Shown here piece by piece: positions 5,999 through 31,581 of a stretch of DNA of 36,801 nt. Numbering within the stretch: the stretch's first letter is position 1; each line of letters starts with the position of its first letter. The translations under genes and the position numbers were made by a program. The notes beneath the pieces were generated by a model that was given only the letters and a program-made list of their open reading frames with translations, had not been told where the DNA came from and searched no databases. This DNA comes from an uncultured Ignavibacteria bacterium (lineage in GTDB: Bacteria; Bacteroidota; Ignavibacteria; Kapaibacteriales; UBA2268), in the NCBI GenBank assembly GCA_903862655.1, contig CAIOZA010000084.1:1-36801 (forward strand), written 5' to 3'.

Positions 5999-6838
5999 AT
6001 GGATCCGCAAAATATGTATATACCTTATTTAATGAGGATAGAGAAGATAATTGATGAAGCACCGGCGGTGAAGACATTCAGACTAAAATTCGTTAATCAG
6101 GAAGATGCTGAAAAATTCAGCTTTGTTGCAGGGCAGTTTGGTGAATATTCTGTATTTGGAGAAGGAGAGTCCACTTTCTGCATCGCTTCATCTCCAACAC
6201 GAAAGGATTATATCGAATGTACTTTTCGTGAAACAGGCAGAGTCACTGCAGCTCTCACAAGTTGTGATGTCGGAGATATAGTAGGTTTTCGGGGACCTTA
6301 CGGAAACATCTTTCCGCTTGAGAAATGGTTCGGTAAGAATTTATTGTTTATTGCAGGAGGTATCGGTTTACCACCCCTACGTTGTGTTATTTGGAATGTA
6401 TTAGACTTAAGAGATAAATTTGGAGATATAACTATCGTTTATGGTGCACGTAAGGTAGATGATTTGGTATATAAGTATGAATTTGAAGAATGGTTGAAAT
6501 ACCCAAACGTAAAACTTGTTACAACTGTTGATCCTGGTGGTGAGACTCCTGAATGGAAGGGTGAAGTTGGCTTTGTACCATCAATTGTTGAAAAAATTCA
6601 ACCCAAAGGAGAAAATTCAATCGCATTAATTTGCGGACCACCGATTATGATAAAATACTCACTGCCATTATTGGAAAAGTTCGGTTATAGTCAGGATAGT
6701 ATTTATACTACTTTGGAGAACAGAATGAAGTGCGGCTTTGGCAAATGTGGTCATTGCATGGTTGGAAATGTCTATGTATGCAAAGATGGGCCTGTATTTC
6801 GATACGATGAATTGCTGTTGTTGCCTGCAGAGTATTAG
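5999..6838 (+). CDS. flxA: FlxA-like FAD/NAD(P)H-binding subunit
   Basis: This 279-residue protein is of the ferredoxin-NADP reductase type found as AsrB, sulfhydrogenase gamma and dihydroorotate dehydrogenase electron-transfer subunits. An FAD-binding barrel (AGQFGEYSV, then GPYGNIFP) is followed by the NAD-binding half with AGGIGLPPLR near residue 118 and CGPP near 219. A C-terminal cysteine set CGFGKCGHC near residues 244-252 plus one cysteine further on will hold a [2Fe-2S] cluster. This is the NADH entry point of the predicted complex. It is the last gene of the operon; a hairpin follows 4 nt after the stop. An association with an alcohol dehydrogenase gene, known in Desulfovibrio, is not seen here within the window. 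Confidence 0.9.
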   Translation: MDPQNMYIPYLMRIEKIIDEAPAVKTFRLKFVNQEDAEKFSFVAGQFGEYSVFGEGESTFCIASSPTRKDYIECTFRETGRVTAALTSCDVGDIVGFRGPYGNIFPLEKWFGKNLLFIAGGIGLPPLRCVIWNVLDLRDKFGDITIVYGARKVDDLVYKYEFEEWLKYPNVKLVTTVDPGGETPEWKGEVGFVPSIVEKIQPKGENSIALICGPPIMIKYSLPLLEKFGYSQDSIYTTLENRMKCGFGKCGHCMVGNVYVCKDGPVFRYDELLLLPAEY

Positions 6839-6842
6839 TAAA

Positions 6843-6866
6843 TTAACCCGGTGAAAGCTGGGTTAA
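6843..6866 (+). terminator. Hairpin after flxA
   Basis: TTAACCC and GGGTTAA form a 7-bp stem that can be lengthened by a G-C and a G-U pair, leaving a 6-nt loop. It lies 4 nt after the flxA stop codon. No good T tract follows (AAATTAAT), so it may stabilise the mRNA end rather than act as a strong intrinsic terminator. Confidence 0.45.
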
Positions 6867-6950
6867 ATTAATATGAAATACGAAAATCAAAAAATAAGAC
6901 TTTCCCTGAAAAATTTCAACCTATAAGACATAGTTTGTCCGCTAAGTAGT

Positions 6951-6958
6951 TATATTTG
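6951..6958 (+). promoter_or_regulatory. Promoter -7 element for the AddB-like gene
   Basis: TATATTTG matches the Bacteroidota -7 consensus TAnnTTTG. A TTTG exists upstream but at a spacing shorter than the usual 19-21 nt, so the -33 element is poor. Transcription would start near 6965, which leaves a leader of about 27 nt before the ATG at 6992. Confidence 0.4.
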
Positions 6959-6991
6959 CATTAATTGAAAACAGAAATTAATGGTATATAT

Positions 6992-9900
6992 ATGTCTCAC
7001 TTGCTTTATAATACTTCTTTTGATGTAAAGTCAATGCCGGAAACGATTGATGATGCCATCCGTTTGGGGATAAAGACAGATAGTATTGGTAATTATATTT
7101 TTATAGTACCTACAGGAAAAATCGTCAGGCATATAAAAAATAAGATAATTTTTGAATATCATAATGCCACGGGTAAACCTCTAACGACGTTGAATGTGTT
7201 CACACTTCAAACTTTTGTAAAATTCATTTTCGATAAATTCGAAGATTCGTATAAGTATCATCTAGTGTCTGATGCATACAGGCTTGCTTTGTTCGAGGAA
7301 GCTGCCGAAAATGCTCAACTGAAATTCTTTTCCCCTCATCCAAAAAAATTATCATCAAATCTTTTGAAAAGGCTCACTGAAGTAGTAATGGGACTGAAAG
7401 AAGATGGAATACTTCCCCAACATTTCGAAAAGAACATTCAGAAAGCTATGCTTGACGAAGCATTCGAGCTGGAGCTGGCAAGGATGACAGATATATATGC
7501 TCTCTACTCCGCTTATGAGCTGATACAAGAAAACAAATTTCTTGATCTACCGGGTATGATCAGTCTGCTTACAAGATGGTTGAATGCGATACCTGAGACA
7601 GATCTGCTTGCCGACAAAATTTTTACGGATAAACCTTTGATACTGGCTGAGGGATTCACAGAGTTCAAGATGCCGGAACTGAACTTTCTGTCAACGTTTG
7701 CACAGACTAAAGTTCCTTTTGCCGTTAATATTGAATATGACGACAGGACTGGACCACTATACACGATACTCGAGGATTCTATAAGCAGATTGAATAATGT
7801 CGGATTCGGACTGAAGGAAACAAGGAATGATTCCAGCGAAACCAAGAATCAAATTACTGAGTTTTTAAAGCATAATTTGTTCAGTAATCAGCCGGATATA
7901 AGTAAGGATTTATCTTCAATTATAAGGATACATGCTTCATACAGCAGACTCGACGAAGTAAGGAACATAGCCAGAATGGTAAAGCATCTGATATTGAAAG
8001 AAGGATACCAACCTGCTGAGATCTGTGTGGCAATGCGGAGTCCAAATCATTATTCAGAGCTTTTCCGCGAAGTGTTTTTCACTCATCAGATTCCGGCGAA
8101 CATAACTGACAGATATGAACTTGCGAAGAGCCCTGTTTCGGTTGGAGTGATTTCGCTGCTGGAGCTGGTTATCAATGGGTTCAGATTTGAAGATTTGGTG
8201 AAAGTGATAAAGAATCCATTCATAAGTATCAGTTACGACGACGGAACTGCTATTGATGCTGACAATCTGATAGCAACGGCTATTGCACTGAGAATCAGAG
8301 GTGGATCTAGGTATGGGAAACAGAACTGGCAAAAGAGAATTAGTGATGCTATTAAGGCTTTGAGTCAGAGAATTGATATATTGGGAGCTGATGAATTCAG
8401 TGAGAATTTTGAGATAATTAAGGCAGAGCAGGAGTTAGTAAAACTGAAGAAGGCATCAGAAGATTTTAATCTGATCGCGGAGTATCTGAATTTTGACATA
8501 AAGAGTTTATCGCCGGACGAATTCGCTCATGTGATTGTCAATCATATCCTGGAGCGATTCCATATTATATCAAATATTGATCATCTGCTGGAAGTTAGCC
8601 TGAACTCCGGAATTGAGAATAAAGGAATCAAAAGCAACGAAATAATGGAGAATGCCGAGAAGTCAGCGAAGTCTCTGGGTGGAATCATTCAGATTGTTGA
8701 TGAAATGAAGTATGTGTTGAACGACAGATTTTCGTCGAGGAAGTTCAGATTTGAGGATCTGGCAGACAGATTCAAGACGAGTATTTCGGGAGCTAAGTAC
8801 CAGACATTTGAGAAAATCGGATATGGAGTAACCGTTACAACGATAGAACAGACACGAAGGATCCCATACAAAGTAATGATTCTATGCGGTGCGATTGACG
8901 GAGAATTCCCTGTTGCATATAAACCTGAGACATTTCTAGGTATGGAATTGCCCGATACAGAGATCAGGCATATATTGTCGGAGAGAATCCAGTTCTATCA
9001 GTTGCTCACGAATGCTCCTGACTTCTTGAACAGCAACGAGAAGCGAATCTTTATAACCTATCCTAAAACATCTGACGACAGAGATCTGGTCAGATCACCG
9101 TTTGTTGATAATTTGATTAAAATTACGACAATGGAAGAAGACGGGAACGTACATGATCTTCAGAAGCTGTCTTCTGCTAATGAGGCAGACGAGTTGAATG
9201 ATGTAGAGAAAAAACAGCTTGCATCAATTCCGTGGATAAATTCTATAGCTTCGGAAGCAGATCTGCAGGATTATTACGGTGTAAATTTAGTAACAGAGCT
9301 TGCCGAACAAACACCTGCAACGGATTATAAGGAAAACATACCTGATAAGTACGAATTCAATTATATCAAAAGGTCATTGTTGACTTTGCCGCCGAAATCT
9401 GAGAAGGTGAAGATAGATTTCGATAAGATGCCGGCAGATATTATTGAAAAGATAGAGAAGTACAATTCACATTCATTCTCTGTTACAGAACTTGAACTAT
9501 ACGCATCATGTCCGTACAAATTTTTTCTAAGATATATAATCGGACTGGGTGAGCCGGAAGAAATGAAGCTGATGTTATCACCGATTGAAAAAGGAGTGCT
9601 GATGCATAGTGCTTTATATATCTTCTACAGTCGGCTGCAAAAATCCGATAGTATTTCTGTGAATTCTGAACCGATACTTGATTGCAAAACTCCCGGACTG
9701 CCATTGGCAATACCAGTTTACTTAAATGAGTATATGTTCGATGATTACAGAACAATGTTCCGTAATATAGTAACAGATTTACTGAATGAGATAAGGTTCG
9801 AGCATCCATTTTTCACATTCGAAGAGGAGTTTATACTCGGCATTGATGGAAGGGGAGGATTAGCCGATATTTGGATGAAAGAGGAATTCAAAAGACTCCG

Positions 9901-10501
9901 AGCGGGATGGGCGTCTGTACCGGTGCTATTCGAATTTAGTTTTGGAATGAAGTCATCGAAAGGAAAGGCATCCATACCAGCAATCGAAATAGCAGACGGA
10001 ATAAAGATTAAAGGAAAGATCGACAGAATCGAGATAGATAATTCTGGAGAGGAGAGGTCTTTCATCATTGCTGATTATAAGACATCCGACGGAGGTCTTC
10101 CTACGAATACAAGTATTATGCAAGGTAAGAAATTTCAGGTACCATTGTATATCATAGCCACAAGACAAATTCTTATGGAACACTACCAAAGCGATATTAA
10201 GTCAGGCGGAGGAGTCTATTATATATTGAATCCAAAGTATAAGGCAGAGGATAACAAGGCAGATGCGATGAAGTGTATTCTCGTTCCTAGGGATACGAAG
10301 CTTTCGGTATTATATGGCGAAAAGAAGTCATCTTCAGTTCTGAAGAAAGAGGAAGTTCTTGAGTATATTTTGAATGACTCGGTTGAATCTGCTATTGGAA
10401 TAGTGAAGAGAATAAGAAATGGAGAATTTGATGTTGAACCGGATAAAACAGCTTGCACCTATTGCTCGTTTGGGTCAATATGCAGAATAAAGGACAGGTG
10501 A
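6992..10501 (+). CDS. AddB-like PD-(D/E)XK nuclease
   Basis: About 1169 residues. The C-terminal third is a RecB/AddB-type nuclease: YASCPYKFFLRY near residue 836, GVLMHSALY, GKIDRIE near 1010, ADYKTS near 1028 and QVPLYI shortly after. The cysteine before the nuclease and the terminal CTYCSFGSIC near 1155-1165 form the AddB-type four-cysteine [4Fe-4S] staple. The N-terminal two thirds look like a degenerate superfamily 1 helicase fold (IFIVPTGK; TTIEQTRRIPYK), but I see no Walker A GxxGxGKT. It probably works in double-strand break processing with an AddA-type helicase-nuclease, which is not encoded here. I prefer the ATG at 6992 over an in-frame TTG at 6965, since the predicted transcript begins near 6965. 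Family confident, exact subunit name less so. Confidence 0.8.
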   Translation: MSHLLYNTSFDVKSMPETIDDAIRLGIKTDSIGNYIFIVPTGKIVRHIKNKIIFEYHNATGKPLTTLNVFTLQTFVKFIFDKFEDSYKYHLVSDAYRLALFEEAAENAQLKFFSPHPKKLSSNLLKRLTEVVMGLKEDGILPQHFEKNIQKAMLDEAFELELARMTDIYALYSAYELIQENKFLDLPGMISLLTRWLNAIPETDLLADKIFTDKPLILAEGFTEFKMPELNFLSTFAQTKVPFAVNIEYDDRTGPLYTILEDSISRLNNVGFGLKETRNDSSETKNQITEFLKHNLFSNQPDISKDLSSIIRIHASYSRLDEVRNIARMVKHLILKEGYQPAEICVAMRSPNHYSELFREVFFTHQIPANITDRYELAKSPVSVGVISLLELVINGFRFEDLVKVIKNPFISISYDDGTAIDADNLIATAIALRIRGGSRYGKQNWQKRISDAIKALSQRIDILGADEFSENFEIIKAEQELVKLKKASEDFNLIAEYLNFDIKSLSPDEFAHVIVNHILERFHIISNIDHLLEVSLNSGIENKGIKSNEIMENAEKSAKSLGGIIQIVDEMKYVLNDRFSSRKFRFEDLADRFKTSISGAKYQTFEKIGYGVTVTTIEQTRRIPYKVMILCGAIDGEFPVAYKPETFLGMELPDTEIRHILSERIQFYQLLTNAPDFLNSNEKRIFITYPKTSDDRDLVRSPFVDNLIKITTMEEDGNVHDLQKLSSANEADELNDVEKKQLASIPWINSIASEADLQDYYGVNLVTELAEQTPATDYKENIPDKYEFNYIKRSLLTLPPKSEKVKIDFDKMPADIIEKIEKYNSHSFSVTELELYASCPYKFFLRYIIGLGEPEEMKLMLSPIEKGVLMHSALYIFYSRLQKSDSISVNSEPILDCKTPGLPLAIPVYLNEYMFDDYRTMFRNIVTDLLNEIRFEHPFFTFEEEFILGIDGRGGLADIWMKEEFKRLRAGWASVPVLFEFSFGMKSSKGKASIPAIEIADGIKIKGKIDRIEIDNSGEERSFIIADYKTSDGGLPTNTSIMQGKKFQVPLYIIATRQILMEHYQSDIKSGGGVYYILNPKYKAEDNKADAMKCILVPRDTKLSVLYGEKKSSSVLKKEEVLEYILNDSVESAIGIVKRIRNGEFDVEPDKTACTYCSFGSICRIKDR

Positions 10502-10635
10502 AACAGTAGAAAGTAGAAAGAAATACATGATTATTGGATCGATCAATATACAGACTGTGTTCTACACAAGCTGAACTCAATAGTTAATGAAGTTTACACT
10601 ACCTTATTATGAGTTATTAATTTAGGAAAATCGCT

Positions 10636-10809
10636 TCAAACTTTCACTTTTTGAAATTTTAGATTTGTTTTTATTGGTTTAAACTTCTTTTTATGATGCT
10701 GATTTTCGTAAAGTTTGATTAGTTCACTAAATTCTTTAAGTTCAACATCAGACCATGGCTTATCAATAACATAAAAGTCGACATTTCTAGATTCTTTAAT
10801 AAGTCCCAT
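10636..10809 (-). CDS. Small hypothetical protein (57 aa)
   Basis: A 57-codon open frame begins MGLIKESRNVDFYVIDKPWS and ends in a lysine-rich tail. An AGGAAAA element lies about 9 nt upstream of the ATG, a better ribosome site than most genes here have. The charged composition with aromatic residues looks like a real small protein. It lies about 95 nt downstream of the orphan HicB-like gene on the same strand and could be co-transcribed with it. I do not recognise a family and assign no function. A toxin or antitoxin role is possible from position only. Confidence 0.5.
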   Translation of the reverse strand: MGLIKESRNVDFYVIDKPWSDVELKEFSELIKLYENQHHKKKFKPIKTNLKFQKVKV

Positions 10810-10903
10810 AATACTTTTCCTATTTAAAATATTGATTTATCAATTTCATAGCACCTAATCAAGAAAAAATTATGTTAGGATAAGGGAAAACATAGAGTAA
10901 ACT

Positions 10904-11155
10904 CTACACCGATGCTAATTCCTTTTTCTTGGTTTTTCTATAATTTATTTTCACAAATTCAGCTAATCTTTGTTTGGGTTTAGGTACATCATATCCTTTT
11001 TCTATCATAAATTCAATGTGATATTTCAAAGCTTCCTTCATGCTCACTTCGCATTCTTCTATAGTATCCCCAACTGCAATGCAGCCTTCGATATCAGGAG
11101 AATAAGCTGAGTAGCCTGTTTTTGTTTTTTCTATTACAATGAGATATTCATTCAT
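10904..11155 (-). CDS. HicB-like antitoxin-fold protein (orphan)
   Basis: This 83-residue protein has the degraded RNase H fold of HicB: YLIVIEKTKTGYSAYSPDIE, then GCIAVGDTIEECEVSMKEAL and the helix of residues 40-55. The C-terminal 25 residues are basic (NYRKTKKK) and show no clear DNA-binding ribbon or helix-turn-helix. No HicA toxin gene adjoins it, so it is a solitary HicB-like protein. It starts 7 nt after the stop of the TPR-CHAT gene on the same strand, which suggests co-transcription. Family call is solid; function unknown in this setting. Confidence 0.75.
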   Translation of the reverse strand: MNEYLIVIEKTKTGYSAYSPDIEGCIAVGDTIEECEVSMKEALKYHIEFMIEKGYDVPKPKQRLAEFVKINYRKTKKKELASV

Positions 11156-11162
11156 TCCCCAC

Positions 11163-13964
11163 CTAATTATTCCCCACTAGTATAAATCCTCCCCAATAAT
11201 AGGGTTTTTCCCAGGTGGAGAGGGAATTGAGCTGTGCCTTGCGGAAGGCATCACGCATTGTCATACCGGAGAAAAGATAGGTATAGAACGATGTCATAAG
11301 CTCCTGTGTAGCTGAGTCGTTGACTTTCCAGAGACTCATCACCAGATTCTTAGCACCTGCTATGAGGAAAGCACGCTGAAGACCATACACTCCTTCACCA
11401 TTGCGAACCTCTCCGAGTCCTGTTTCGCAGGCACTAAGGACAAGTAGGTTCACATCATCGAGAGTAAGGTTTGATGCTTCAAACGCAGTAAGAACGCCAT
11501 TCCCGGATTTATTTCCTGTAAAATCTTTACTGAAAAGTGTATTCGTTGCTCCGGCGAAAAGTAGCCCTGATCTTAATAGCGGCTCTTTTACTGCTTTATC
11601 CATATTGATACCATAGGCATTGGCGGAGAACGTGGTCAAATCCTGGAGGAAGAACCCATGCGTAGCTATGTGAAGAATGTTCGATGATGTTGATTGCTTC
11701 AGATTGGCTTCGTTAGCATCTGTATTCTGGTAAACATGGACTTTTACTTTATTGTCCCTGAGTAAGCTGGAAATTCTATCGGCTTCTTCCTGTGTGCCTG
11801 GAAGTTCCGGGATGTTCTCCTGTAAAATCTTCAGATCATTCTTTGAAATAATGGGATATTTTTCCTCTTGTGATTTAAGTGCCGACAGAACTTCTTCTGA
11901 GAGGGTATATGCAGGATTGCAAAAAAGGCTGGCCGTAGACAAAGGTATGTCCTTATCCTGTCTGTTGATTAGAACTAAAGTATTCGGGACGATAACTATA
12001 TTTTTATCTTCAAGAACGTAGGATTTATCTGGTTTCTGAAGCGTCGAGAGATTAATTTTGTTATAGACACCATCTTGAGAAATAAAGAGAGTTGTCTTGC
12101 CCTGTAGCTCTAAATCTGCTTTTCCCCAGAATGCTGAATAGGAATCTTTGTCTTCGATCTGGAATTTGATACTGTTAATGTAGTTACGGATATAGTATTT
12201 ATCCAGATCATAGCCATTCTTGACAACAACAAGTTTCGGATGATCTTTAGTTTCTGTTGTAACAATGAGAAAAGCATAATAAACTGAGTCCAACCATGAC
12301 TTTTCGAAGAGATTAAAGCGAACAATCTCGATAGCTGCCTGATCAGGCTTTAGACTTTTCTGAACATCTCTCCATGACAGTTTCTTATGATTAAGACTGG
12401 AGCTAAAATCATTAGACTTCTGAGATAATTTCTTTTCGATTGTATTGACTTTTTGTTCGATAGAATTAACACTTTTGCCGGATCTTTCTAGCTCTTTATT
12501 GTTCATCGAGTATAATTTGGAAAGTTCTTCTTTGTTAAAAACCCATTCATTGAAAAGTGATATCAGTTCAGGATTGCGACTGGATAGAATCTGTGTTCTG
12601 ACTTTACGTGAAGCATCGAGCAAGATTGCTTTAGTTGCAATTCTATAGTCGAACATCTTTGCAATAAGGTCTGGATTATCCTGATATCTTGTCATAACGT
12701 ACATATTGAACTGATTGAATCTTTCATTCAGGACTGAGTAGAATTTAGCTTTCTCGTCGTCGCTCATAAATGGGAAATTTATGCTAATTTGCTCCTGATA
12801 GAGATCAAAAGCTTCAAAATAGCGTTTTTCTGCTTCGGGAAATTTACCGAGTTCCTTGAGAACACCTGCAAGATTGTGTACGGAAGTTGCATAGTCGGGA
12901 TGCTTAGGACCATAGATTTGTTCACGGACATTTAAAGCGTTTGAGAGATAGTTGTATGCTTCTTGTGTGTTCCCAATCTGTAGTTCAACTAATCCAAGAG
13001 AGTTTAAACAAGATGCATAGAGAGGATGACCGTTGCCTAAATACTTCTCAGTTTGTGAGAGAACAGATGTGAATAGCTCTTTTGCTTTGTCGAGCTGATT
13101 ATCGTCCCAGAGGATCGTAGCGTAGCTGAAATCATTTTGAATTGATTCAGGTCTGCCGGGAGCGAAGTTATCCTTCTCTATTGTCTTTGCGTTGGTGATT
13201 GCCAATTCAGCTTTTTTAGTCTCACCAAGGTACTTATATGAAGAAGCAAGAGCAAAATAGGCATTTACCAATTCAGGATCCTTATTTTGAGAACCCGATA
13301 AATAGATGGCTATGGCTTTTTCAAGATTTTCTACTGCCTGAGGATAATTGCCGAGTTTGTTATAAAGAATGCCAAGATTCTTCAAAGTTATTGCATAAGC
13401 AAGGCTGTTAGGTCCGGGCACAACTTTGCGGATAGATGCCGCTATATTATATAGTCTTTCAGCGTCCTCATATTCAGCCTGATTGAATGACAGGACTGCA
13501 AGGTTGTGGGCAGATGTCGCAAAGGAACTGTCATTTTCGCCTAAAGTGATCTTTTTTATATCGAAAGCTCTAAGAAGATGCGGTCTTCCTTCACGAATTT
13601 TGCCTACAGCTACGAGCTCAGATCCAAGATTATTCAGAGCTCTTGCAAATCTGTAGCTGGTGTCGCCATAAGCAATTTGTTTGGAATCAACTTCAATGTA
13701 GAAGTACTCGATAGCTTTTTCGAGATTACCTAGTCTATGATAGATTAGTCCGACTAAATTGATTGAGTTGGCATAATTTTTAATGTTTTTCTCGGCACCG
13801 TTTTGTGCAAGTTCAATTGCCTGTAGCGCTTTAGCAAGAGCCTGAGTAAACTGATTTTGTTCGAATAGCTTATCTGCCTGAGAGAAAACATCATTCCAGC
13901 TTTGAGCCGAAAGATTGCAGACAAACATTGAAATAAAGAGTATTATATAAAAAAGCTTTTTCAT
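11163..13964 (-). CDS. Exported TPR-CHAT domain protein
   Basis: About 933 residues from the chosen ATG (MKKLFYI), which gives a clean signal peptide ending near LSAQ; an ATG three codons upstream (13973) is the alternative. Residues 25-400 are tetratricopeptide repeats, seen as recurring patterns such as NLGILYNKLGNYPQAVENLE, then a helical linker. The C-terminal ~330 residues are a CHAT domain, a caspase/separase-like cysteine protease fold. Its histidine box is HIATHGFF near residue 766 and its cysteine box is LSACETGLG near 846, so both catalytic residues are present. The signal peptide puts it in the periplasm or outside the cell. Substrate and trigger are unknown. The downstream HicB-like gene follows at 7 nt. 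Confidence 0.88.
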   Translation of the reverse strand: MKKLFYIILFISMFVCNLSAQSWNDVFSQADKLFEQNQFTQALAKALQAIELAQNGAEKNIKNYANSINLVGLIYHRLGNLEKAIEYFYIEVDSKQIAYGDTSYRFARALNNLGSELVAVGKIREGRPHLLRAFDIKKITLGENDSSFATSAHNLAVLSFNQAEYEDAERLYNIAASIRKVVPGPNSLAYAITLKNLGILYNKLGNYPQAVENLEKAIAIYLSGSQNKDPELVNAYFALASSYKYLGETKKAELAITNAKTIEKDNFAPGRPESIQNDFSYATILWDDNQLDKAKELFTSVLSQTEKYLGNGHPLYASCLNSLGLVELQIGNTQEAYNYLSNALNVREQIYGPKHPDYATSVHNLAGVLKELGKFPEAEKRYFEAFDLYQEQISINFPFMSDDEKAKFYSVLNERFNQFNMYVMTRYQDNPDLIAKMFDYRIATKAILLDASRKVRTQILSSRNPELISLFNEWVFNKEELSKLYSMNNKELERSGKSVNSIEQKVNTIEKKLSQKSNDFSSSLNHKKLSWRDVQKSLKPDQAAIEIVRFNLFEKSWLDSVYYAFLIVTTETKDHPKLVVVKNGYDLDKYYIRNYINSIKFQIEDKDSYSAFWGKADLELQGKTTLFISQDGVYNKINLSTLQKPDKSYVLEDKNIVIVPNTLVLINRQDKDIPLSTASLFCNPAYTLSEEVLSALKSQEEKYPIISKNDLKILQENIPELPGTQEEADRISSLLRDNKVKVHVYQNTDANEANLKQSTSSNILHIATHGFFLQDLTTFSANAYGINMDKAVKEPLLRSGLLFAGATNTLFSKDFTGNKSGNGVLTAFEASNLTLDDVNLLVLSACETGLGEVRNGEGVYGLQRAFLIAGAKNLVMSLWKVNDSATQELMTSFYTYLFSGMTMRDAFRKAQLNSLSTWEKPYYWGGFILVGNN

Positions 13965-17366: not shown

Positions 17367-18266
17367 TTAAAGCAAGGAAAAAAAGAAACCCCATATTAAA
17401 ATACCTAGAATTCCAATGTATAACATTATATCGACATCAAAGATCAAAGCGATAAACAGTAAATTAATCATTGTAACGATTAATAAAACTATAAACTTTT
17501 TCGTATTCCTAAATTCGAGATTAAACAATTTATAGTTATCGCGATACAATTCCCTTATCCATTTACCATCTTTGAACGAAATTTCAATTTCTTTTTCTAA
17601 GGAATGTTTTTCTTCATTTAATTTAATAATATTTTTATCTACTAAATCAAATCTTTTCATGTCAGACTGATATTTTGCTATTTCAGCATTACTTTTAATG
17701 AAGTTCTCAATGTCTCTACGGCCAACAAATTTCACAGATCTAGGTCCATTTTTGATTATAATTTTTTCTGTATAACTACTGGAAAAGTCATCTACATTCT
17801 TTTCGGCATGACTTTTTAATAGTTCGCAATGAATCTCATCAAATTTAAATTTATTACCATATTTTTCATTGATTATCTTTGAATTTAATTCAAAATTTTC
17901 TATTCTTTTCATTATTTCTTGCTCAATTACTTCAATTCTTTCTTCAAATTTCTCAATGGTATTTCTCATTGAAGGACTATACTTTAAATCTAATAAATTA
18001 TTAAAAACTATCCTCAATCGATTAAAAAGTGGAAAAAACAAAAGGTAAGGTATCACTATTGCAATTTCAAGCAATGAAAAGTAACCAACAAATACAGCCC
18101 AATATGGCTCTTTATTAATAAATTGCAAAGAATTGTCAGAATCTTTTAGAATGAGAATTAATATTATATTTAACAAAAATATAAATACATTAAAGTATAG
18201 TAATGTTTTTGTGATCAACTCACGTTTTTTTAAAGAAATCAAATTCTTAAGATGTTGTTCATTCAT
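17367..18266 (-). CDS. Unknown four-helix membrane protein with coiled-coil middle
   Basis: This 299-residue protein has two predicted membrane helices near residues 21-42 (LLYFNVFIFLLNIILILIL) and 57-80. A long charged region follows (about 95-235) with coiled-coil character (EKFEERIEVIEQEIMKRIEN; NIIKLNEEKHSLEKEIEI). Two more helices close the chain near 255-297 and end WGFFFSLL. The central domain would face the cytoplasm if both hairpins insert alike. The gene is AT-rich with no operon partner. No family is recognised. Isolated membrane proteins with cytosolic coiled coils can be effectors of defence systems, but nothing here shows that. Confidence 0.65.
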   Translation of the reverse strand: MNEQHLKNLISLKKRELITKTLLYFNVFIFLLNIILILILKDSDNSLQFINKEPYWAVFVGYFSLLEIAIVIPYLLFFPLFNRLRIVFNNLLDLKYSPSMRNTIEKFEERIEVIEQEIMKRIENFELNSKIINEKYGNKFKFDEIHCELLKSHAEKNVDDFSSSYTEKIIIKNGPRSVKFVGRRDIENFIKSNAEIAKYQSDMKRFDLVDKNIIKLNEEKHSLEKEIEISFKDGKWIRELYRDNYKLFNLEFRNTKKFIVLLIVTMINLLFIALIFDVDIMLYIGILGILIWGFFFSLL

Positions 18267-25495: not shown

Positions 25496-27529
25496 CTAAT
25501 AGGTTATCTGCTCCAGTGCTTTTGATGCTTCAGTTACAGGCATTTTGCATAACTTGTCTTTGCAGATGTAGATCGTTGTCTGACCTTGAATTAGTTTATC
25601 TTTGAGTGAAGGCAAAGTTCCTTCATCCTTTCCACCTGCGAGGAAAACATTGGGCAGATAGTTCTGATCGAATTCTTTTCGGAGATTCTCACAATCTTCG
25701 CCGTCGATTGCAACTAAATAAGTTCCATAAGTGAACCATGCGAGAAGGATATCCCAGTTTGCGAAGAATGAGCCTCCGGATTCAAGTCTGTTGTGAACAT
25801 TTTCTAACATTCTTCGTGATCTGCTGATATAGTCATCGTTATAGAAGTATTGCCCCAGCACGTAGAGATTCTTTGCCATTGTTGAATTGGCGGCAGGAAT
25901 CACGTTGTCGGAAAGCTCCATTGTTCTGGCGATAAGCTCAGGATCCATATCTGATGTATAGAAGAACATTCCGCTATTTGAGTCGGCAAAGTGAGAGATA
26001 GTATATTCAGTAAGACTCTGTGCCAGATAGAGCCACTTTTCGTCAAATGTTGCCTGATAGAGTGCAATTAAAGCCTCGATAGTGAATGCATAATCGTCCA
26101 AGAAGGCGTTGATTGTTGCTTTCCCATTCTTATAATTACGGTACAATCTATTTTCATCGGTTTTCAGTTTTGTGCTGATGAACTCGGCTGTTTGCAGTGC
26201 TGTTGAGAGATAATCTGGGTCTCCGAAAACACGGTAGGCATCCACATATCCTTTGAGCATAAGTGCATTCCATGAAGTTAGAATCTTATCGTCAAGTCCG
26301 GGATGAATTCGTTTTTCACGGACTTGGAGTAACTTAGTCTTTGTTTGCTGAATTATATTCGCGAGTTCAGTTTCAGATATTCCGTGTTTATCTGCGAAAG
26401 CCTTGTCAGTTGTGGATTTGAGGAGTATGTTCTGACCGTGTTCCCAGTTACCTTGATCGGTAACGTTGTAGTAATCACACATCAAATCTGCGTTTTCGCC
26501 GAGAATTTCTTTCAATTCGCTTTTCGTCCAGATGTAGAACTTCCCTTCGACTCCTTCGCTGTCGGCATCAAGAGAAGAATAAAAGCCATTTTCGGGAGAG
26601 GATAATTCTCTTTTGCAGAATTCGAGAGTTTCATTAACTATCGTTTTGTAAACCGGATCTTTGCAAAGCTGATAAGCAGATGAATAGAGGCTTACGAGTT
26701 GAGCATTGTCATAAAGCATTTTCTCGAAATGGGGAACTTTCCACTGAATATCGGTCGAATATCTTGCGAAACCGCCGCCAATCTGATCATAGATGCCGCC
26801 GTCAGCCATTTTGTCCAGAGTGATTTTTACTGCAAAGAATGCATCTGCTGTTCGAGTTAGATAGAAATAATTGAGTAAAAACTGATAGCCGACCGGCAGG
26901 GGGAATTTCGGTGCACGCTTGTGTCCGCCCAGCTCAAAGTCAATACCTGTCTTCCAGTTATTGAAAATCGCATCCAGATTGCTTATGTTAAATTCGCTGA
27001 TTTCCTGTGATGAATAAAGCAATTCGCTTGCTTTGACGCCATCGGTGAGGGCTTTTGCCTGTTCTTCGGTTTTGTCGGGATTCTGTTTGACGAAGTTCGC
27101 AACCTGAGACAGCATATCGAGCCATTGTGCCTTGGGGAAATATGTTCCTCCATAGATTGGTCTTCCGTCGGGCAGAGCAAGGCAGTTCAGGGGCCAGCCT
27201 CCGTTGCCGTTGATGAGCTGGACGGCGGACATATAGACACTATCGATATCAGGCCGTTCTTCGCGGTCAACCTTGATGGAGATAAAATTCGCGTTCATGA
27301 ACTCAGCCACTTCTTCATCTTCGAAGCATTCGTGCTCCATGACGTGGCACCAGTGGCAGGCTGCATAGCCGATGCTGATGATGAGAAGTTTGTTTTCGCT
27401 GCGGGCTTTGTTCAGAGCTTCTTCACCCCAGGCATACCAGTTAACGGGATTGTGGGCATGCTGAAGAAGATAAGGACTGGTCTCGTTGACGAGATTGTTA
27501 GTATATTTATGATTTATATTGTTTTCCAT
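25496..27529 (-). CDS. YyaL/DUF255-type thioredoxin-domain protein
   Basis: This 677-residue protein matches the YyaL/spermatogenesis-associated protein 20 family. The N-terminal thioredoxin-like domain opens with the family signature [20 protein letters not shown] near residue 15 and has a CHWCHVM motif near 59, plus DREERPD and [10 protein letters not shown]. An (alpha/alpha)6 barrel like that of N-acylglucosamine epimerases fills the rest ([37 protein letters not shown]). The reaction is not established. It is cytoplasmic, with no signal peptide. It faces the nucleotidase tail to tail. Identity of the family is secure. Confidence 0.93.
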
Positions 27530-27688: not shown

Positions 27689-27894
27689 TTATTTTTGTTT
27701 TGGAAATATTTTATAAATATCTTTTCTATGAGAAATTACAATAAGTCTTATTACATCGGAGCTTATCAGTTCAAATCCTAAGCGGTAATCTCCAATCCTT
27801 ATTCTGTAATAATCTTCTCTAATCTTAATAATATTTTGGATTCCCGGATATTATCAATACTTTTCAAAAATGATTTGTCAAATTCTAATCTCAT
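27689..27894 (-). pseudogene. Broken RelE/ParE-type toxin
   Basis: Frame 1 starts at the ATG at 27894 (overlapping the antitoxin stop as ATGA) and reads MRLEFDKSFLKSIDNIRES, then meets a stop after about 31 codons. A second frame restores the family: KIREDYYRIRIGDYRLGFEL and IRLIVISHRKDIYKIFPKQ, the hallmark C-terminal half of RelE-like toxins, ending in TAA at 27689-27691. The whole is 206 nt against about 255-270 nt for intact members, so roughly 50-60 nt of the middle are missing and the frame is broken there. The toxin is very probably inactive. It is missed by a simple length filter because both pieces are short. Confidence 0.75.
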
Positions 27895-28088
27895 TTTTTA
27901 TGTAACTTATCGAAAATCTTTTCTCTGCTTACCAATTCATCAGTTTTAACATTATTCATTAAATCGCCCAAAGCAATGTCTTCAATAATATCATTGCTAG
28001 CATCATATACTTTTCCACCTAATTCTTTAGCTAGATTAGCGATTAACCTGCTTTTTCTTTTATCAGACTGTATTACTAAAGTAGTCAT
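27891..28088 (-). CDS. Antitoxin of the broken RelE pair
   Basis: This 65-residue protein starts MTTLVIQSDKRKSRLIANLA and continues KELGGKVYDASNDIIEDIA, ending in KLHKK. The small size, the N-terminal basic segment and the acidic middle, with the 4-nt ATGA overlap to a RelE-type gene, fit a type II antitoxin. The family is not one I can name. The antitoxin frame is intact while the toxin is broken. Confidence 0.65.
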   Translation of the reverse strand: MTTLVIQSDKRKSRLIANLAKELGGKVYDASNDIIEDIALGDLMNNVKTDELVSREKIFDKLHKK

Positions 28089-28350: not shown

Positions 28351-28542
28351 ATGAGAAAAATCATTCATTTCAATATATCAAAGGGCGATCAGTACTATGC
28401 TGCTGAATGTAATGAACTGCCTATTGTTACACAGGGTATAACATTAGATGAAACTATAGCGAATATTCAGGAAGCTTTGCAGTTACATCTTGAGGATGAG
28501 GATTTATCAAAGTATGAAATAAAAATAAGTGAACTAAAATGA
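28351..28542 (+). CDS. HicB-like protein (orphan)
   Basis: This 63-residue protein reads MRKIIHFNISKGDQYYAAEC, then LPIVTQGITLDETIANIQEA, which is the compact HicB-type fold: two strands, a GxT..E helix of about 15 residues and LHLEDE. There is no HicA gene next to it and no DNA-binding tail. The stop codon overlaps the ATG of the first lipoprotein copy as ATGA, so the two were translationally coupled. It is the third HicB-like gene in this window. Role unknown. Confidence 0.7.
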   Translation: MRKIIHFNISKGDQYYAAECNELPIVTQGITLDETIANIQEALQLHLEDEDLSKYEIKISELK

Positions 28543-29067
28543 AAAAATTAGTAATTTTCTGTTTAATGGCATTAGGACTAATCTCATGTGGTGAAGATAA
28601 ATGGAAAGATTATGGGAAATGAAATAAAATTATTGGACAAAGTTCAAGTACAGAAATATATCTATATAATTGAATTATTTGTTTTAAATCAAATAGAGGG
28701 AAATATTTTTGATGACTTATATATTCAAATTAGACGCGACGATTCATATTGGATGTCTGGTGCATTTGATAGGAGGATTGAAGAAATATTGAGTACTTTT
28801 TTTCTAGATATTGATGAGTATGCCCCTGATGAATTATTTGATCCGAATGATAAATTTAATATAAATGAAGCCGAGTTAAGAAAAAGAGCAAATGAGGTAC
28901 TAATCAAATTGAAAAAATTAATAGAATAAGAAAAGTTTCCAAATACAGATATTATTATTTCCAACATTTAAATGCAATTAATTTATCCTGTATATTTTAA
29001 ATATAAATTTTTTATAAAGATAGAACTTGGTGTTCCAGTAAATTTAAAATTAGATTTTGAGAAATAG
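28539..29067 (+). pseudogene. Disrupted first copy of the lipoprotein array
   Basis: The 5' end (28539-28622) encodes MKKLVIFCLMALGLISCGED then a stop, almost the same as the start of the intact gene at 29095 (MKELVILCLMAFGIISCGED). The 3' end (about 29017-29067) encodes ELGVPVNLKLDFEK then TAG, matching the last 14 residues of the intact copies (ELGVPVNLKLKFEK). The middle (about 28616-28930) holds an unrelated 105-codon gene. So this copy has lost its centre and only its two ends remain. The N-terminal piece still encodes a lipoprotein signal with a Cys at residue 17. Confidence 0.8.
28612..28929 (+). CDS. Unknown acidic protein (105 aa) inside the broken lipoprotein gene
   Basis: From ATG 28612 the protein starts MGNEIKLLDKVQVQKYIYII and continues with SYWMSGAFDRRIEEILSTFF, then an acidic stretch DEYAPDELFDPNDKF and a final helix rich in lysine. 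A GTG-started longer form (28588) overlaps the lipoprotein remnant and is less likely. No signal peptide. The size, acidity and position resemble the immunity proteins found among small accessory genes of Bacteroidota, but I have no family match, so this is only a suggestion. Confidence 0.6.
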   Translation: MGNEIKLLDKVQVQKYIYIIELFVLNQIEGNIFDDLYIQIRRDDSYWMSGAFDRRIEEILSTFFLDIDEYAPDELFDPNDKFNINEAELRKRANEVLIKLKKLIE

Positions 29068-29099
29068 ACAGTACACTCAAATATAAAGGTTGATATGAA
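29056..29099 (+). repeat. Linker repeat, copy 1
   Basis: A 44-nt segment spanning the end of the broken first copy, its stop and the start of the next gene (TTTGAGAAATAGACAGTACA then CTCAAATATAAAGGTTG and ATATGAA). It differs from 30248-30291 at 4 positions. The shared gene-end plus intergenic linker shows that a whole unit was duplicated. Confidence 0.85.
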
Positions 29100-29655
29100 A
29101 GAATTAGTAATTTTATGTTTAATGGCATTTGGTATAATATCATGTGGTGAAGACAAGTGGAAAAATTATGGCGGAGGATATGAATTAGGATATTTTGATA
29201 TAAATGTCGATACACAATGTTGGATACAACTTAATATTGGCGAAGTAATTTATGGAGGGGACACTAAAGAAGAACAAATTCGAAAAGGTAAATGGATAAA
29301 ATTTGTTGATAGAAACAATTCCATCGATTCTTGCATTGTAGGGAAAGGAGGTGCAGTCATTGACTCTTATGTAGATGATGCCATTTTTGATAATAAATTT
29401 ATCTTGGTCGATCAGAAGGATCTTGATAGTATCTTTGGACCTTATAAAATTCACATTGATCAAAATAATGATACTTCTTCAATACGTAAAATACCTGAAT
29501 CAATGGAAGGAATTGAGATAAGTAATTTTCATCAATATTGGATAATTAACAAGAATATTGATTATGTCTATGGTCCTTTTCGCAAGGAAGAATATCTCCA
29601 GAAAAAGAAAGAACTAGGTGTTCCGGTTAATTTAAAATTAAAATTTGAGAAATAG
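29095..29655 (+). CDS. Small lipoprotein of tandem family, copy 2
   Basis: This 186-residue protein starts MKELVILCLMAFGIISCGED; the Cys at residue 17 follows ISC, a lipobox, so it is anchored in a membrane. The body has strings such as FILVDQKDLDSIFG, then HQYWIINKNIDYVYGPFRKE and finally ELGVPVNLKLKFEK. The C-terminal half is nearly the same as in the next gene. It overlaps the open frame of that gene at the end by a few bases but its true start is 29663. I do not know the function; related single lipoproteins occur in tandem arrays in Bacteroidota. Confidence 0.75.
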   Translation: MKELVILCLMAFGIISCGEDKWKNYGGGYELGYFDINVDTQCWIQLNIGEVIYGGDTKEEQIRKGKWIKFVDRNNSIDSCIVGKGGAVIDSYVDDAIFDNKFILVDQKDLDSIFGPYKIHIDQNNDTSSIRKIPESMEGIEISNFHQYWIINKNIDYVYGPFRKEEYLQKKKELGVPVNLKLKFEK

Positions 29656-29662
29656 GTTAGAT

Positions 29663-30259
29663 ATGGCATTGACAGAAAAAACCAAAAAAATCATTAAAAC
29701 AATATTATTAATTTATTCTGCGATTTTATTAATTATTCTATCTCTATATTTAATCCAAATATATTATTTTGAAAAATTAGATAGATTTGATGGATATAGA
29801 ATTTGGGAACCTAACTATCTGGATCGAAGTTTAAGAATGGATAGAGGTGATTATTTTCACCCTGATGAGACATATGAGGATGAACGTAGGAAAGGGATAA
29901 AAGTAACATACATTCGTAATAATGATTCATCAGTAAATTTTATAGGTAAAGATATGTCTTTAATTGATGAATATATAGATGATGCAGTTGATAATAAAGA
30001 GTTTATTTTAGTTGATCAAAAGCCCTTAGATAGTATTTTCGGTAAAATTGAAGAACAATATATTAACGATAAAATTGATCATGTCGGAAGGAAAATTTTT
30101 CCTATGAAAGAATTAATTAACGAAAGTAATATTCATCAATATTGGATAATCCGGAAGAAGTTAGATTATGTTTATGGTCCTTTTCGCAAGGAAGAATATA
30201 TCCTGAAAAAGAAAGAACTGGGAGTTCCAGATAATTTAAAATTAAAATTTGAGAAATAG
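29663..30259 (+). CDS. Membrane-anchored paralogue, copy 3
   Basis: About 198 residues from the ATG (MALTEKTKKIIKTILLIYSA). Its N-terminal half is different from copy 2: instead of a lipobox it has one membrane helix (ILLIYSAILLIILSLYLIQI), so it is an integral-anchor version. The C-terminal half matches copy 2 closely: FILVDQKPLDSIFGK, NIHQYWIIRKKLDYVYGPFR and ELGVPDNLKLKFEK. A TTG-started reading from 29645 is a few codons longer and unlikely. Only 7 nt separate it from copy 2, so they form one transcript. Function unknown. Confidence 0.75.
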   Translation: MALTEKTKKIIKTILLIYSAILLIILSLYLIQIYYFEKLDRFDGYRIWEPNYLDRSLRMDRGDYFHPDETYEDERRKGIKVTYIRNNDSSVNFIGKDMSLIDEYIDDAVDNKEFILVDQKPLDSIFGKIEEQYINDKIDHVGRKIFPMKELINESNIHQYWIIRKKLDYVYGPFRKEEYILKKKELGVPDNLKLKFEK

Positions 30260-30291
30260 ACAGTACAAGCACATATAAAGGTTGAAATGAA
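30248..30291 (+). repeat. Linker repeat, copy 2, ending at an orphan ATG
   Basis: This matches 29056-29099 with 4 differences in 44 nt. It runs through the end of copy 3 and ends with an ATG (30287-30289). That ATG is where the next array member should begin, but instead the 63-bp dispersed repeat starts there, overlapping the linker by 2 nt. Confidence 0.8.
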
Positions 30292-30352
30292 TACTGAATG
30301 CGCTTCGCAGTCTTTCGGAACTCACGGTCGCTCCGCTCCCTCAGAATGACCA
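30290..30352 (-). repeat. 63-bp dispersed repeat, copy A
   Basis: Reverse complement of 31510-31572 with about 5 differences. The element is GC-rich (for example GCGCTTCGCAG and CTCACGGTCGCT) and lies in reverse orientation at the other end of the lytic transglycosylase gene. It has no open frame of its own. It looks like a small mobile or REP/MITE-type element. The remaining stretch to the next gene (30353-30528) shows nothing else. Confidence 0.85.
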
Positions 30353-30528
30353 ATTCGATAGTTCTCACACAGTCTCATCCGAAGAAAAAACAGACTGGGT
30401 GCTGGATTATTACTAATGAATATTCTGATATTTCGTGTTCAATCAACCCTCATATTTTACACTTCTAGTATTTATCCTATCTTTTTATTATATTGAATAT
30501 CTATATTAATTAAATCTTGGTGGTAAAA

Positions 30529-31509: not shown

Positions 31510-31572
31510 TGGTCATCCTGAGGGAGCGAAGCGACCGTGAGTTCCGAAGGACTGCGAAGCGCATCCAGTATT
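31510..31572 (+). repeat. 63-bp dispersed repeat, copy B
   Basis: Inverted partner of 30290-30352. The shared sequence includes CCTGAGGGAGCG and CGTGAGTTCCGAA. With copy A it flanks the transglycosylase gene, but the copies are too far from the gene boundaries for exact target-site reading. No transposase is present nearby. Confidence 0.85.
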
Positions 31573-31581
31573 AATGCGGTC

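What the first reader, a model, noticed from the sequence alone, without database searches (positions are those of the whole stretch)
28539..30291. Tandem lipoprotein array in which one copy had its centre swapped for an unrelated gene
Three paralogues lie in a row. Copy 1 keeps only its lipoprotein signal and its last ~14 residues, while the middle holds a new 105-codon gene. Copy 2 is whole and copy 3 has exchanged its lipobox for a membrane helix while keeping the same C-terminal half. A shared 44-nt end-plus-linker repeat marks the unit of duplication, and a leftover ATG after copy 3 marks a lost fourth member. This resembles recombining immunity-gene arrays, where common ends let the cores be exchanged.
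Basis: partly seen in the sequence, partly recalled or inferred. Interest (0 to 1): 0.65.

Follow-up and report, generated by a model that had tools for sequence, protein, structure and literature searches.

The report
Orphan immunity-gene islet with swapped middle
A small AT-rich patch between housekeeping genes holds leftover antidote-type genes, two of them related to lipoproteins that sit beside Rhs-type antibacterial toxins elsewhere, and an unrelated colicin-immunity-like gene sits in the gap of a broken copy; this is a modest new example of known immunity-gene arrays.

Summary
The array is real. A 77-nt lipoprotein-gene start (68/77 identical to copy 2) precedes an intact 105-codon gene; then come a tail remnant with linker (68/79 identical to copy 3's) and two whole paralogues. 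The 105-aa protein matches Pfam PF09204 Colicin_immun (E 6e-20) and is 51% identical to a protein in a distant genome of the phylum. The paralogues are divergent DUF3997-like proteins; two of seven related places elsewhere lie directly behind an Rhs tip, and those two tips are homologous. Neither this tip nor a colicin D domain was detected in the window's genome, so the genes look like orphan immunity genes. Exchange is supported for the 3' ends of copies 2 and 3 (silent-site jump, permutation p 0.0016) but not shown for the swapped centre: the linker suggests the tail belonged to a copy-3-type gene, so a deletion across a two-gene unit is likelier. The 'leftover ATG' coincides with the start of a dispersed repeat and is no evidence of a fourth gene. 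Immunity function is inferred; PF09204 also occurs outside immunity, and five of the seven places show no Rhs tip. No strain comparison was possible.

The parts
27689..27897 (-). Remains of a RelE-like partner of the RelB-like gene, spread over two reading frames (broken)
   Evidence: Open stretches 27689-27850 and 27799-27897 in different frames; the RelE label is recalled, no library was searched with it
27891..28088 (-). RelB-like antitoxin
   Evidence: PF18506 RelB-like E 4e-4, 20.6 bits, below the cut-off of 27
28351..28542 (+). HicB-like antitoxin with no hicA behind it; its stop overlaps the ATG of the copy-1 fragment (ATGA)
   Evidence: BLASTP 7e-10 (single comparison) to the HicB of contig C60, itself PF15919 E 1e-10 with a HicA neighbour; own Pfam hit to HicB only E 0.088, below cut-off
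28539..28622 (+). Copy 1 (X1) start: 27-codon lipoprotein-signal ORF
   Evidence: 68/77 nt identical to copy 2; homology starts at the ATG and ends at 28615
28612..28929 (+). 105-aa PF09204 Colicin_immun protein; its ATG lies inside the copy-1 fragment
   Evidence: PF09204 E 6e-20, 72 bits, cut-off 22; 51% identical over 102 aa to the L106 protein, aligned from residue 1
28930..29015 (.). 86 nt without detectable origin
   Evidence: Similarity to copies 2 and 3 reached by 223 and 22 of 300 shuffles
29016..29067 (+). Tail remnant of a paralogue (last 16 codons and stop)
   Evidence: 46/52 and 45/52 nt identical to the tails of copies 2 and 3
29068..29094 (+). Linker, as behind copy 3
   Evidence: 23/27 identical to 30260-30286; next best places in the window 18/27; behind copy 2 only 6/27
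29095..29655 (+). Copy 2 (X2): DUF3997-like lipoprotein, 186 aa
   Evidence: lipobox read by eye
29506..29655 (+). 3' exchange block of copy 2
   Evidence: 86% over 150 nt to 30110-30259; identical-codon share 21/44 before and 33/38 from codon 138 on, permutation p 0.0016
29663..30259 (+). Copy 3 (Y2): same family, N-terminal hydrophobic helix, 198 aa
   Evidence: 52% identical to copy 2 over its residues 44-186
30110..30259 (+). 3' exchange block of copy 3
30260..30286 (+). Linker behind copy 3
30287..30378 (+). Dispersed repeat that ends the array and starts with the 'leftover ATG' (3' end approximate)
   Evidence: 42 places listed in the genome, itself included; 11 of the 41 others start at 30287

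Best explanation
This is an orphan immunity islet. Copies 2 and 3 are immunity-type proteins of a DUF3997-like family that elsewhere can follow Rhs toxin tips. One is anchored as a lipoprotein and the other by a membrane helix, so both should hold the C-terminal domain outside the cytoplasm (inferred), where they would bind an incoming Rhs toxin that acts on the envelope (inferred). The array grew as a two-gene unit, X (lipoprotein) then Y (helix-anchored) then linker (inferred). One older unit lost everything between about X codon 26 and the last 16 codons of Y, and a colicin-immunity-domain gene came to lie in the gap, joined at its start codon. Paralogue 3' ends have exchanged sequence (statistical evidence, one pair). 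The cognate toxins were not detected in the genome, so the genes would protect against neighbours or kin rather than self (inferred).
For: PF09204 over the cut-off and a full-length relative with 51% identity. All 7 members of the paralogue alignment match DUF3997 at E up to 0.1, best 3.4e-6. Lipoproteins of the family lie directly behind Rhs tips in L035 and L040, and these two tips are homologous, E 9e-11 in a single comparison. The own genome carries an Rhs locus but no Colicin_D match at E up to 10 and no relative of the paired tip at E up to 0.001. Silent-site jump. The linker lies behind the tail remnant and copy 3, not behind copy 2. A second tandem array of the family with about 865-nt units, whose longer repeats are 92-94% identical, is in another genus. 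GC3 is about 0.20-0.25 in the islet against 0.47 in YyaL and 0.50 in MltD (DnaG 0.37).
Against: Only 2 of 7 related places outside the genome have an Rhs tip next door; in 2 of the other 5 (G010, G021) the upstream side lies at or near a contig end. The 6 genomes of 296 with DUF3997 over its cut-off showed no Rhs in about 3.2-kb loci by a recalled motif. PF09204 is also the C-terminal domain of a bacilliredoxin (PMC8301015, passages read), and its nearest relative found here is not beside a toxin in a 3.3-kb locus. The two-gene unit rests on a 27-nt linker, because the tail itself does not decide between X and Y (46 vs 45 of 52). No structure of useful confidence was obtained.
Confidence: 0.6

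Rival explanations
1. Gene graveyard: a decaying AT-rich patch where remnants of toxin-antitoxin and toxin-immunity modules linger without function.
For: Broken RelE-like frames, HicB-like gene without hicA, truncated X1 and tail remnant, a dispersed repeat at the array's downstream end.
Against: Three frames of 105, 186 and 198 codons are intact; the PF09204 protein is 51% identical to a distant relative over 102 of its 105 residues; third positions between copies 2 and 3 vary more than second positions in residues 89-142 (identity 0.46 vs 0.71).
Confidence: 0.22
2. Cassette exchange as in TipC: the centre of copy 1 was replaced by homologous recombination through the shared ends with a donor array that carried the colicin-immunity gene between the same ends.
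For: Shared 5' (77 nt) and 3' (79 nt) ends flank the foreign gene; exchange at 3' ends is visible; tipC genes recombine through conserved 5' and 3' blocks (PMC9484751, abstract and section 18 read).
Against: No donor found: PF09204 once over its cut-off in the genome, in 1 of 149 relatives searched and 2 of 395 of the phylum, the window's own genome being one each time. The tail's linker points to a Y gene, not an X gene.
Confidence: 0.12
3. The 105-aa protein is not an immunity protein but a PF09204-domain protein with another role; its presence in the array is chance. (Independent of the other rivals.)
For: AbxC carries the domain and NCBIfam AbxC matches weakly over that domain (E 4e-4, far below its cut-off); the G393 relative stands with no toxin seen beside it; no Colicin_D domain in the genome.
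Against: It lies in a patch otherwise made of antidote-type genes; ImmD is named as the major immunity protein of Tox-Colicin D (PMC3482391, passages read).
Confidence: 0.35
4. Metagenome misassembly joined pieces of different arrays.
For: The genome is in 148 contigs and the array holds repeats.
Against: The copy-1 region shares exact runs of at most 20 nt with the rest of the array, and copies 2 and 3 share at most 28 nt; the joins keep an open frame whose first residue aligns with a methionine of its distant relative.
Confidence: 0.03

Closest known systems
TipC lipoprotein immunity arrays (Streptococcus T7SS, PMC9484751; abstract and section 18 read)
   Same: Tandem paralogues with a lipoprotein signal, conserved ends and a more variable middle, recombining with each other
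   Different: No sequence link was tested; here the linked toxin is Rhs-type, one paralogue is helix-anchored, and one gap holds an unrelated gene
Heterogeneous polyimmunity loci (PMC3482391; passages read)
   Same: Unrelated immunity-type genes side by side without their toxins
   Different: Very small; DUF3997 appears in 0 papers of the library, this one included; that paper calls Imm65 the only immunity protein in its collection that appears to be a lipoprotein
Colicin D immunity domain (PF09204, ImmD)
   Same: Domain match over model positions 3-88 of 88
   Different: No colicin D domain detected in the genome; the domain also occurs in AbxC
Orphan immunity arrays of V. cholerae T6SS (PMC5361080) and rAID clusters of gut Bacteroidales (PMC12247911, preprint); abstracts read
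   Same: Immunity genes kept apart from their toxins
   Different: No secretion cluster recognised beside it; a recombinase was not searched for by model

Membership tests
Heterogeneous polyimmunity locus | Several structurally unrelated immunity genes in one cluster | tested here: inconclusive
   One PF09204 gene and two DUF3997-like genes; immunity role of either not shown
Heterogeneous polyimmunity locus | No cognate toxin in the cluster | tested here: met
   No Rhs core match on the window's contig; no Colicin_D match (E up to 10) and no relative of the paired tip (E up to 0.001) in the genome
PF09204 Colicin_immun | Match over the curated cut-off | tested here: met
   72 bits against 22, model positions 3-88 of 88
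Colicin D immunity protein (functional sense) | Colicin D-type tRNase encoded with it | tested here: not met
   No Colicin_D match in the genome
DUF3997 (PF13162) | Match over the curated cut-off | tested here: not met
   Copy 2 18 bits, copy 3 15.9 bits, cut-off 25; own genome no match at E up to 0.001; but all 7 aligned family members match at E up to 0.1, best 3.4e-6
Rhs-linked immunity protein | Gene directly behind an Rhs tip | tested here: inconclusive
   Not so in the window; 2 of 7 related places elsewhere
TipC-type recombining array | Exchange between paralogues through conserved end blocks | tested here: inconclusive
   3' block of copies 2/3: permutation p 0.0016; one pair only, no strains
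rAID cluster | Associated recombinase | not tested
   None recognised by eye among the window's 28 ORFs of 100 aa or more; no model search made

The most novel reading that the evidence does not exclude
The DUF3997-like proteins are a new envelope immunity family for an unnamed Rhs toxin tip, deployed as a pair, one lipoprotein and one inner-membrane-anchored, so that one toxin is met at two places. The pair is the unit that duplicates, loses its middle and takes in foreign immunity genes joined at start codons, with antitoxin halves of toxin-antitoxin pairs (HicB, RelB) collected in the same antidote-only islet.
Probability: 0.17. Interest if true: 0.6.

Novelty: new member of a known kind. 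Interest (0 to 1): 0.4.

Why it matters
It ties a family without assigned function (DUF3997-like) to Rhs toxins and gives a testable toxin-antidote pair in a little-studied lineage. It also shows a natural joint in which an immunity-type gene is fitted at its start codon into a broken paralogue, which bears on how immunity arrays gain unrelated members.

Tried and rejected
Leftover fourth gene: not supported, the ATG coincides with the start of a dispersed repeat; something may still have followed copy 3's linker. Empty-site test: MltD was found in 38 of 54 genomes of the family, window included; I compared 30 of the 38 loci (29 relatives and the window's own), and none of the 29 showed any of the window's other eight genes within the roughly 1.5 kb of flank held, not even DnaG, so no empty site could be read. 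Strain variation: none of the other 53 family genomes shares the genus. Toxin tip in the phylum: 2 of 395 genomes hit, both in long repeat-type proteins that are not Rhs by eye, rejected. Weak family hits in G045, G049, G005 and G006 (E 6e-5 to 5e-4) cover model positions up to 107 at most, so miss most of the C-terminal block; they were dropped, leaving seven places (G010, G046, G038, G095, G021, G106 and JAUZOY010000027.1, the last). Structures: mean pLDDT 45.8 and 40.4, so no fold search was made. Plasmids: no relative of the 105-aa protein, the L040 tip or copy 2. Viral contigs: none for the 105-aa protein. Solved structures: nothing convincing; hits to superantigen chains at E 0.4 are taken as chance. 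Control: PF09204 is over its cut-off in 1 of 14 control genomes (Deinobacterium chartae), a lineage where the domain belongs to a redox protein (for Deinococcus).

Full report
What is there. The window is the whole contig C84 of a genome of 4.07 Mb in 148 contigs. Between a YyaL-like gene (25496-27529, -) and an MltD-like gene (from 30529, +; both labels recalled) lies an AT-rich patch: GC 0.25-0.32 in 500-nt steps and third-position GC 0.20-0.25 in its genes, against 0.47 and 0.50 in the two flanking genes and 0.37 in DnaG beyond. In it lie, in order, a RelB-like gene with broken RelE-like remains on the minus strand, a HicB-like gene, the start of a lipoprotein gene, the 105-codon gene, a tail remnant with a linker, and two whole paralogues.

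Chance. The start fragment matches copy 2 at 68 of 77 nt and then drops to 21 of 60. Tail and linker match copy 3 at 45/52 and 23/27. No shuffle of 300 reached the score of the region holding the tail (28930-29094) against copy 2 or copy 3. The 105-codon gene itself has no similarity to the copies above shuffles.

What the genes are. The 105-aa protein matches PF09204 Colicin_immun with 72 bits against a cut-off of 22. It is the only hit over the cut-off in its genome and in 149 relatives, its own genome included; in the phylum 2 of 395 genomes have one, this one and G393. The G393 protein is 51% identical over 102 residues and aligns from residue 1 of ours, so the gene was probably joined at its natural start. 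G393 shows no toxin next to the gene in a 3.3-kb locus, and the domain is also known from the bacilliredoxin AbxC (PMC8301015, passages read), so the immunity label is likely but not secure.

The paralogue family. Copies 2 and 3 match DUF3997 below its cut-off (18 and 15.9 bits against 25), but all seven aligned members of the family hit it at E up to 0.1, best 3.4e-6. In 123 genomes of the order, 11 have a hit at E up to 1e-3, the window's own among them. Four of the other ten are weak and miss most of the C-terminal block; I dropped them. Counting JAUZOY010000027.1, seven places outside the window's genome remain. In two of the seven the gene directly follows an Rhs tip: L035, with an Rhs core at E 1e-14, and L040, with only the end of the core at the contig end, E 0.036. 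Those two tips are homologous to each other, E 9e-11, and have no Pfam match at E up to 0.05. In two of the other five (G010, G021) a contig end lies at or near the upstream side; in three (G038, G095, G106) no Rhs gene was seen by eye in the stretch fetched. G010 holds a tandem array of its own with units of about 865 nt, whose longer repeats are 92-94% identical. In G038 the gene is in two pieces with a transposase-like ORF between them (label recalled).

Exchange. Among codons for identical residues (M and W left out) copies 2 and 3 share the same codon at 21 of 44 places before copy-2 codon 138 and 33 of 38 from there on; scanning for the best breakpoint in 5000 permutations gives p 0.0016. 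Protein constraint alone does not explain shared silent choices, so the 3' block was probably exchanged or converted more recently than the rest. Local codon constraint is not excluded, and this is one pair of genes.

How the centre was lost. The linker stands behind the tail remnant and behind copy 3; behind copy 2 only 6 of 27 positions match. The simplest ancestor is a unit X (lipoprotein), Y (helix-anchored), linker, present twice. In the older unit a deletion runs from about X codon 26 into the last 16 codons of Y, and the PF09204 gene fills the gap. The tail sequence itself does not decide between X and Y (46 vs 45 of 52), so this is an inference from the linker. Two joints lie at start codons: the homology of the copy-1 fragment begins exactly at its ATG, which overlaps the stop of the HicB-like gene as ATGA, and the PF09204 gene begins where that homology ends. 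A third, the end of the linker homology, falls at the ATG that opens the dispersed repeat. The HicB of contig C60 overlaps its HicA by four bases in the same way as the first joint (coordinates).

What ends the array. From 30287 the sequence is a dispersed repeat: 42 places were listed in the genome including itself (61 candidates, 40 scored), and 11 of the 41 others match from exactly 30287. Of nine other copies read, three have ATGAA at this point, three ATTAA or ATCAA, and three neither. The 'leftover ATG' is therefore not evidence of a fourth gene, though something may once have followed the linker.

Function. Shown: family matches, neighbourhood of Rhs tips in two genomes, exchange signature, no detected colicin D domain or paired tip in this genome, and an Rhs locus on contig C60. 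Inferred: copies 2 and 3 sit in the envelope and neutralise an Rhs toxin acting there; the genes are orphans that protect against others. The closest working model is TipC, a lipoprotein immunity family with conserved ends and a more variable centre that recombines between tandem copies (PMC9484751, abstract and section 18 read).

Novelty. Polyimmunity loci are known (PMC3482391, passages read), as are orphan immunity arrays (PMC12247911 and PMC5361080, abstracts read). The library held no paper with DUF3997 and none with Rhs, Bacteroidetes and 'lipoprotein immunity' together; other wordings were not searched. The finding is a small new member of a known kind with an unusual joint.

Noticed in passing
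L045 (G000 contig C60) 8299-13861: Rhs locus with two cores over the cut-off and a third fragment, successive tips and short genes between them, some with signal-like starts; the tips show HExxH-like stretches (motif recalled, read by eye). A HicA/HicB pair lies just beyond it.
   Followed up: partly
27689-28088: RelB-like gene with a RelE-like partner split over two frames, next to the array; with the HicB-like gene the patch holds mainly antidote halves.
   Followed up: partly
30287-30378 and 31510-31575: Dispersed repeat family, 42 places listed in the genome (query included); the two copies here flank the MltD-like gene in opposite orientation.
   Followed up: partly
17367-18266: AT-rich 299-aa minus-strand ORF (GC about 0.23-0.25) with no Pfam hit except one at chance level (E 0.07); a second AT-rich patch in the contig.
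   Followed up: no
L036 (G038:C2) 9915-11635: A family member lies in two pieces with a transposase-like ORF (label recalled) between them.
   Followed up: no
L034 (G010:C746) 6400-8261: A second tandem array of the family in another genus, with a spacer element present three times about 870 nt apart, suggesting a third unit beyond the contig end.
   Followed up: partly
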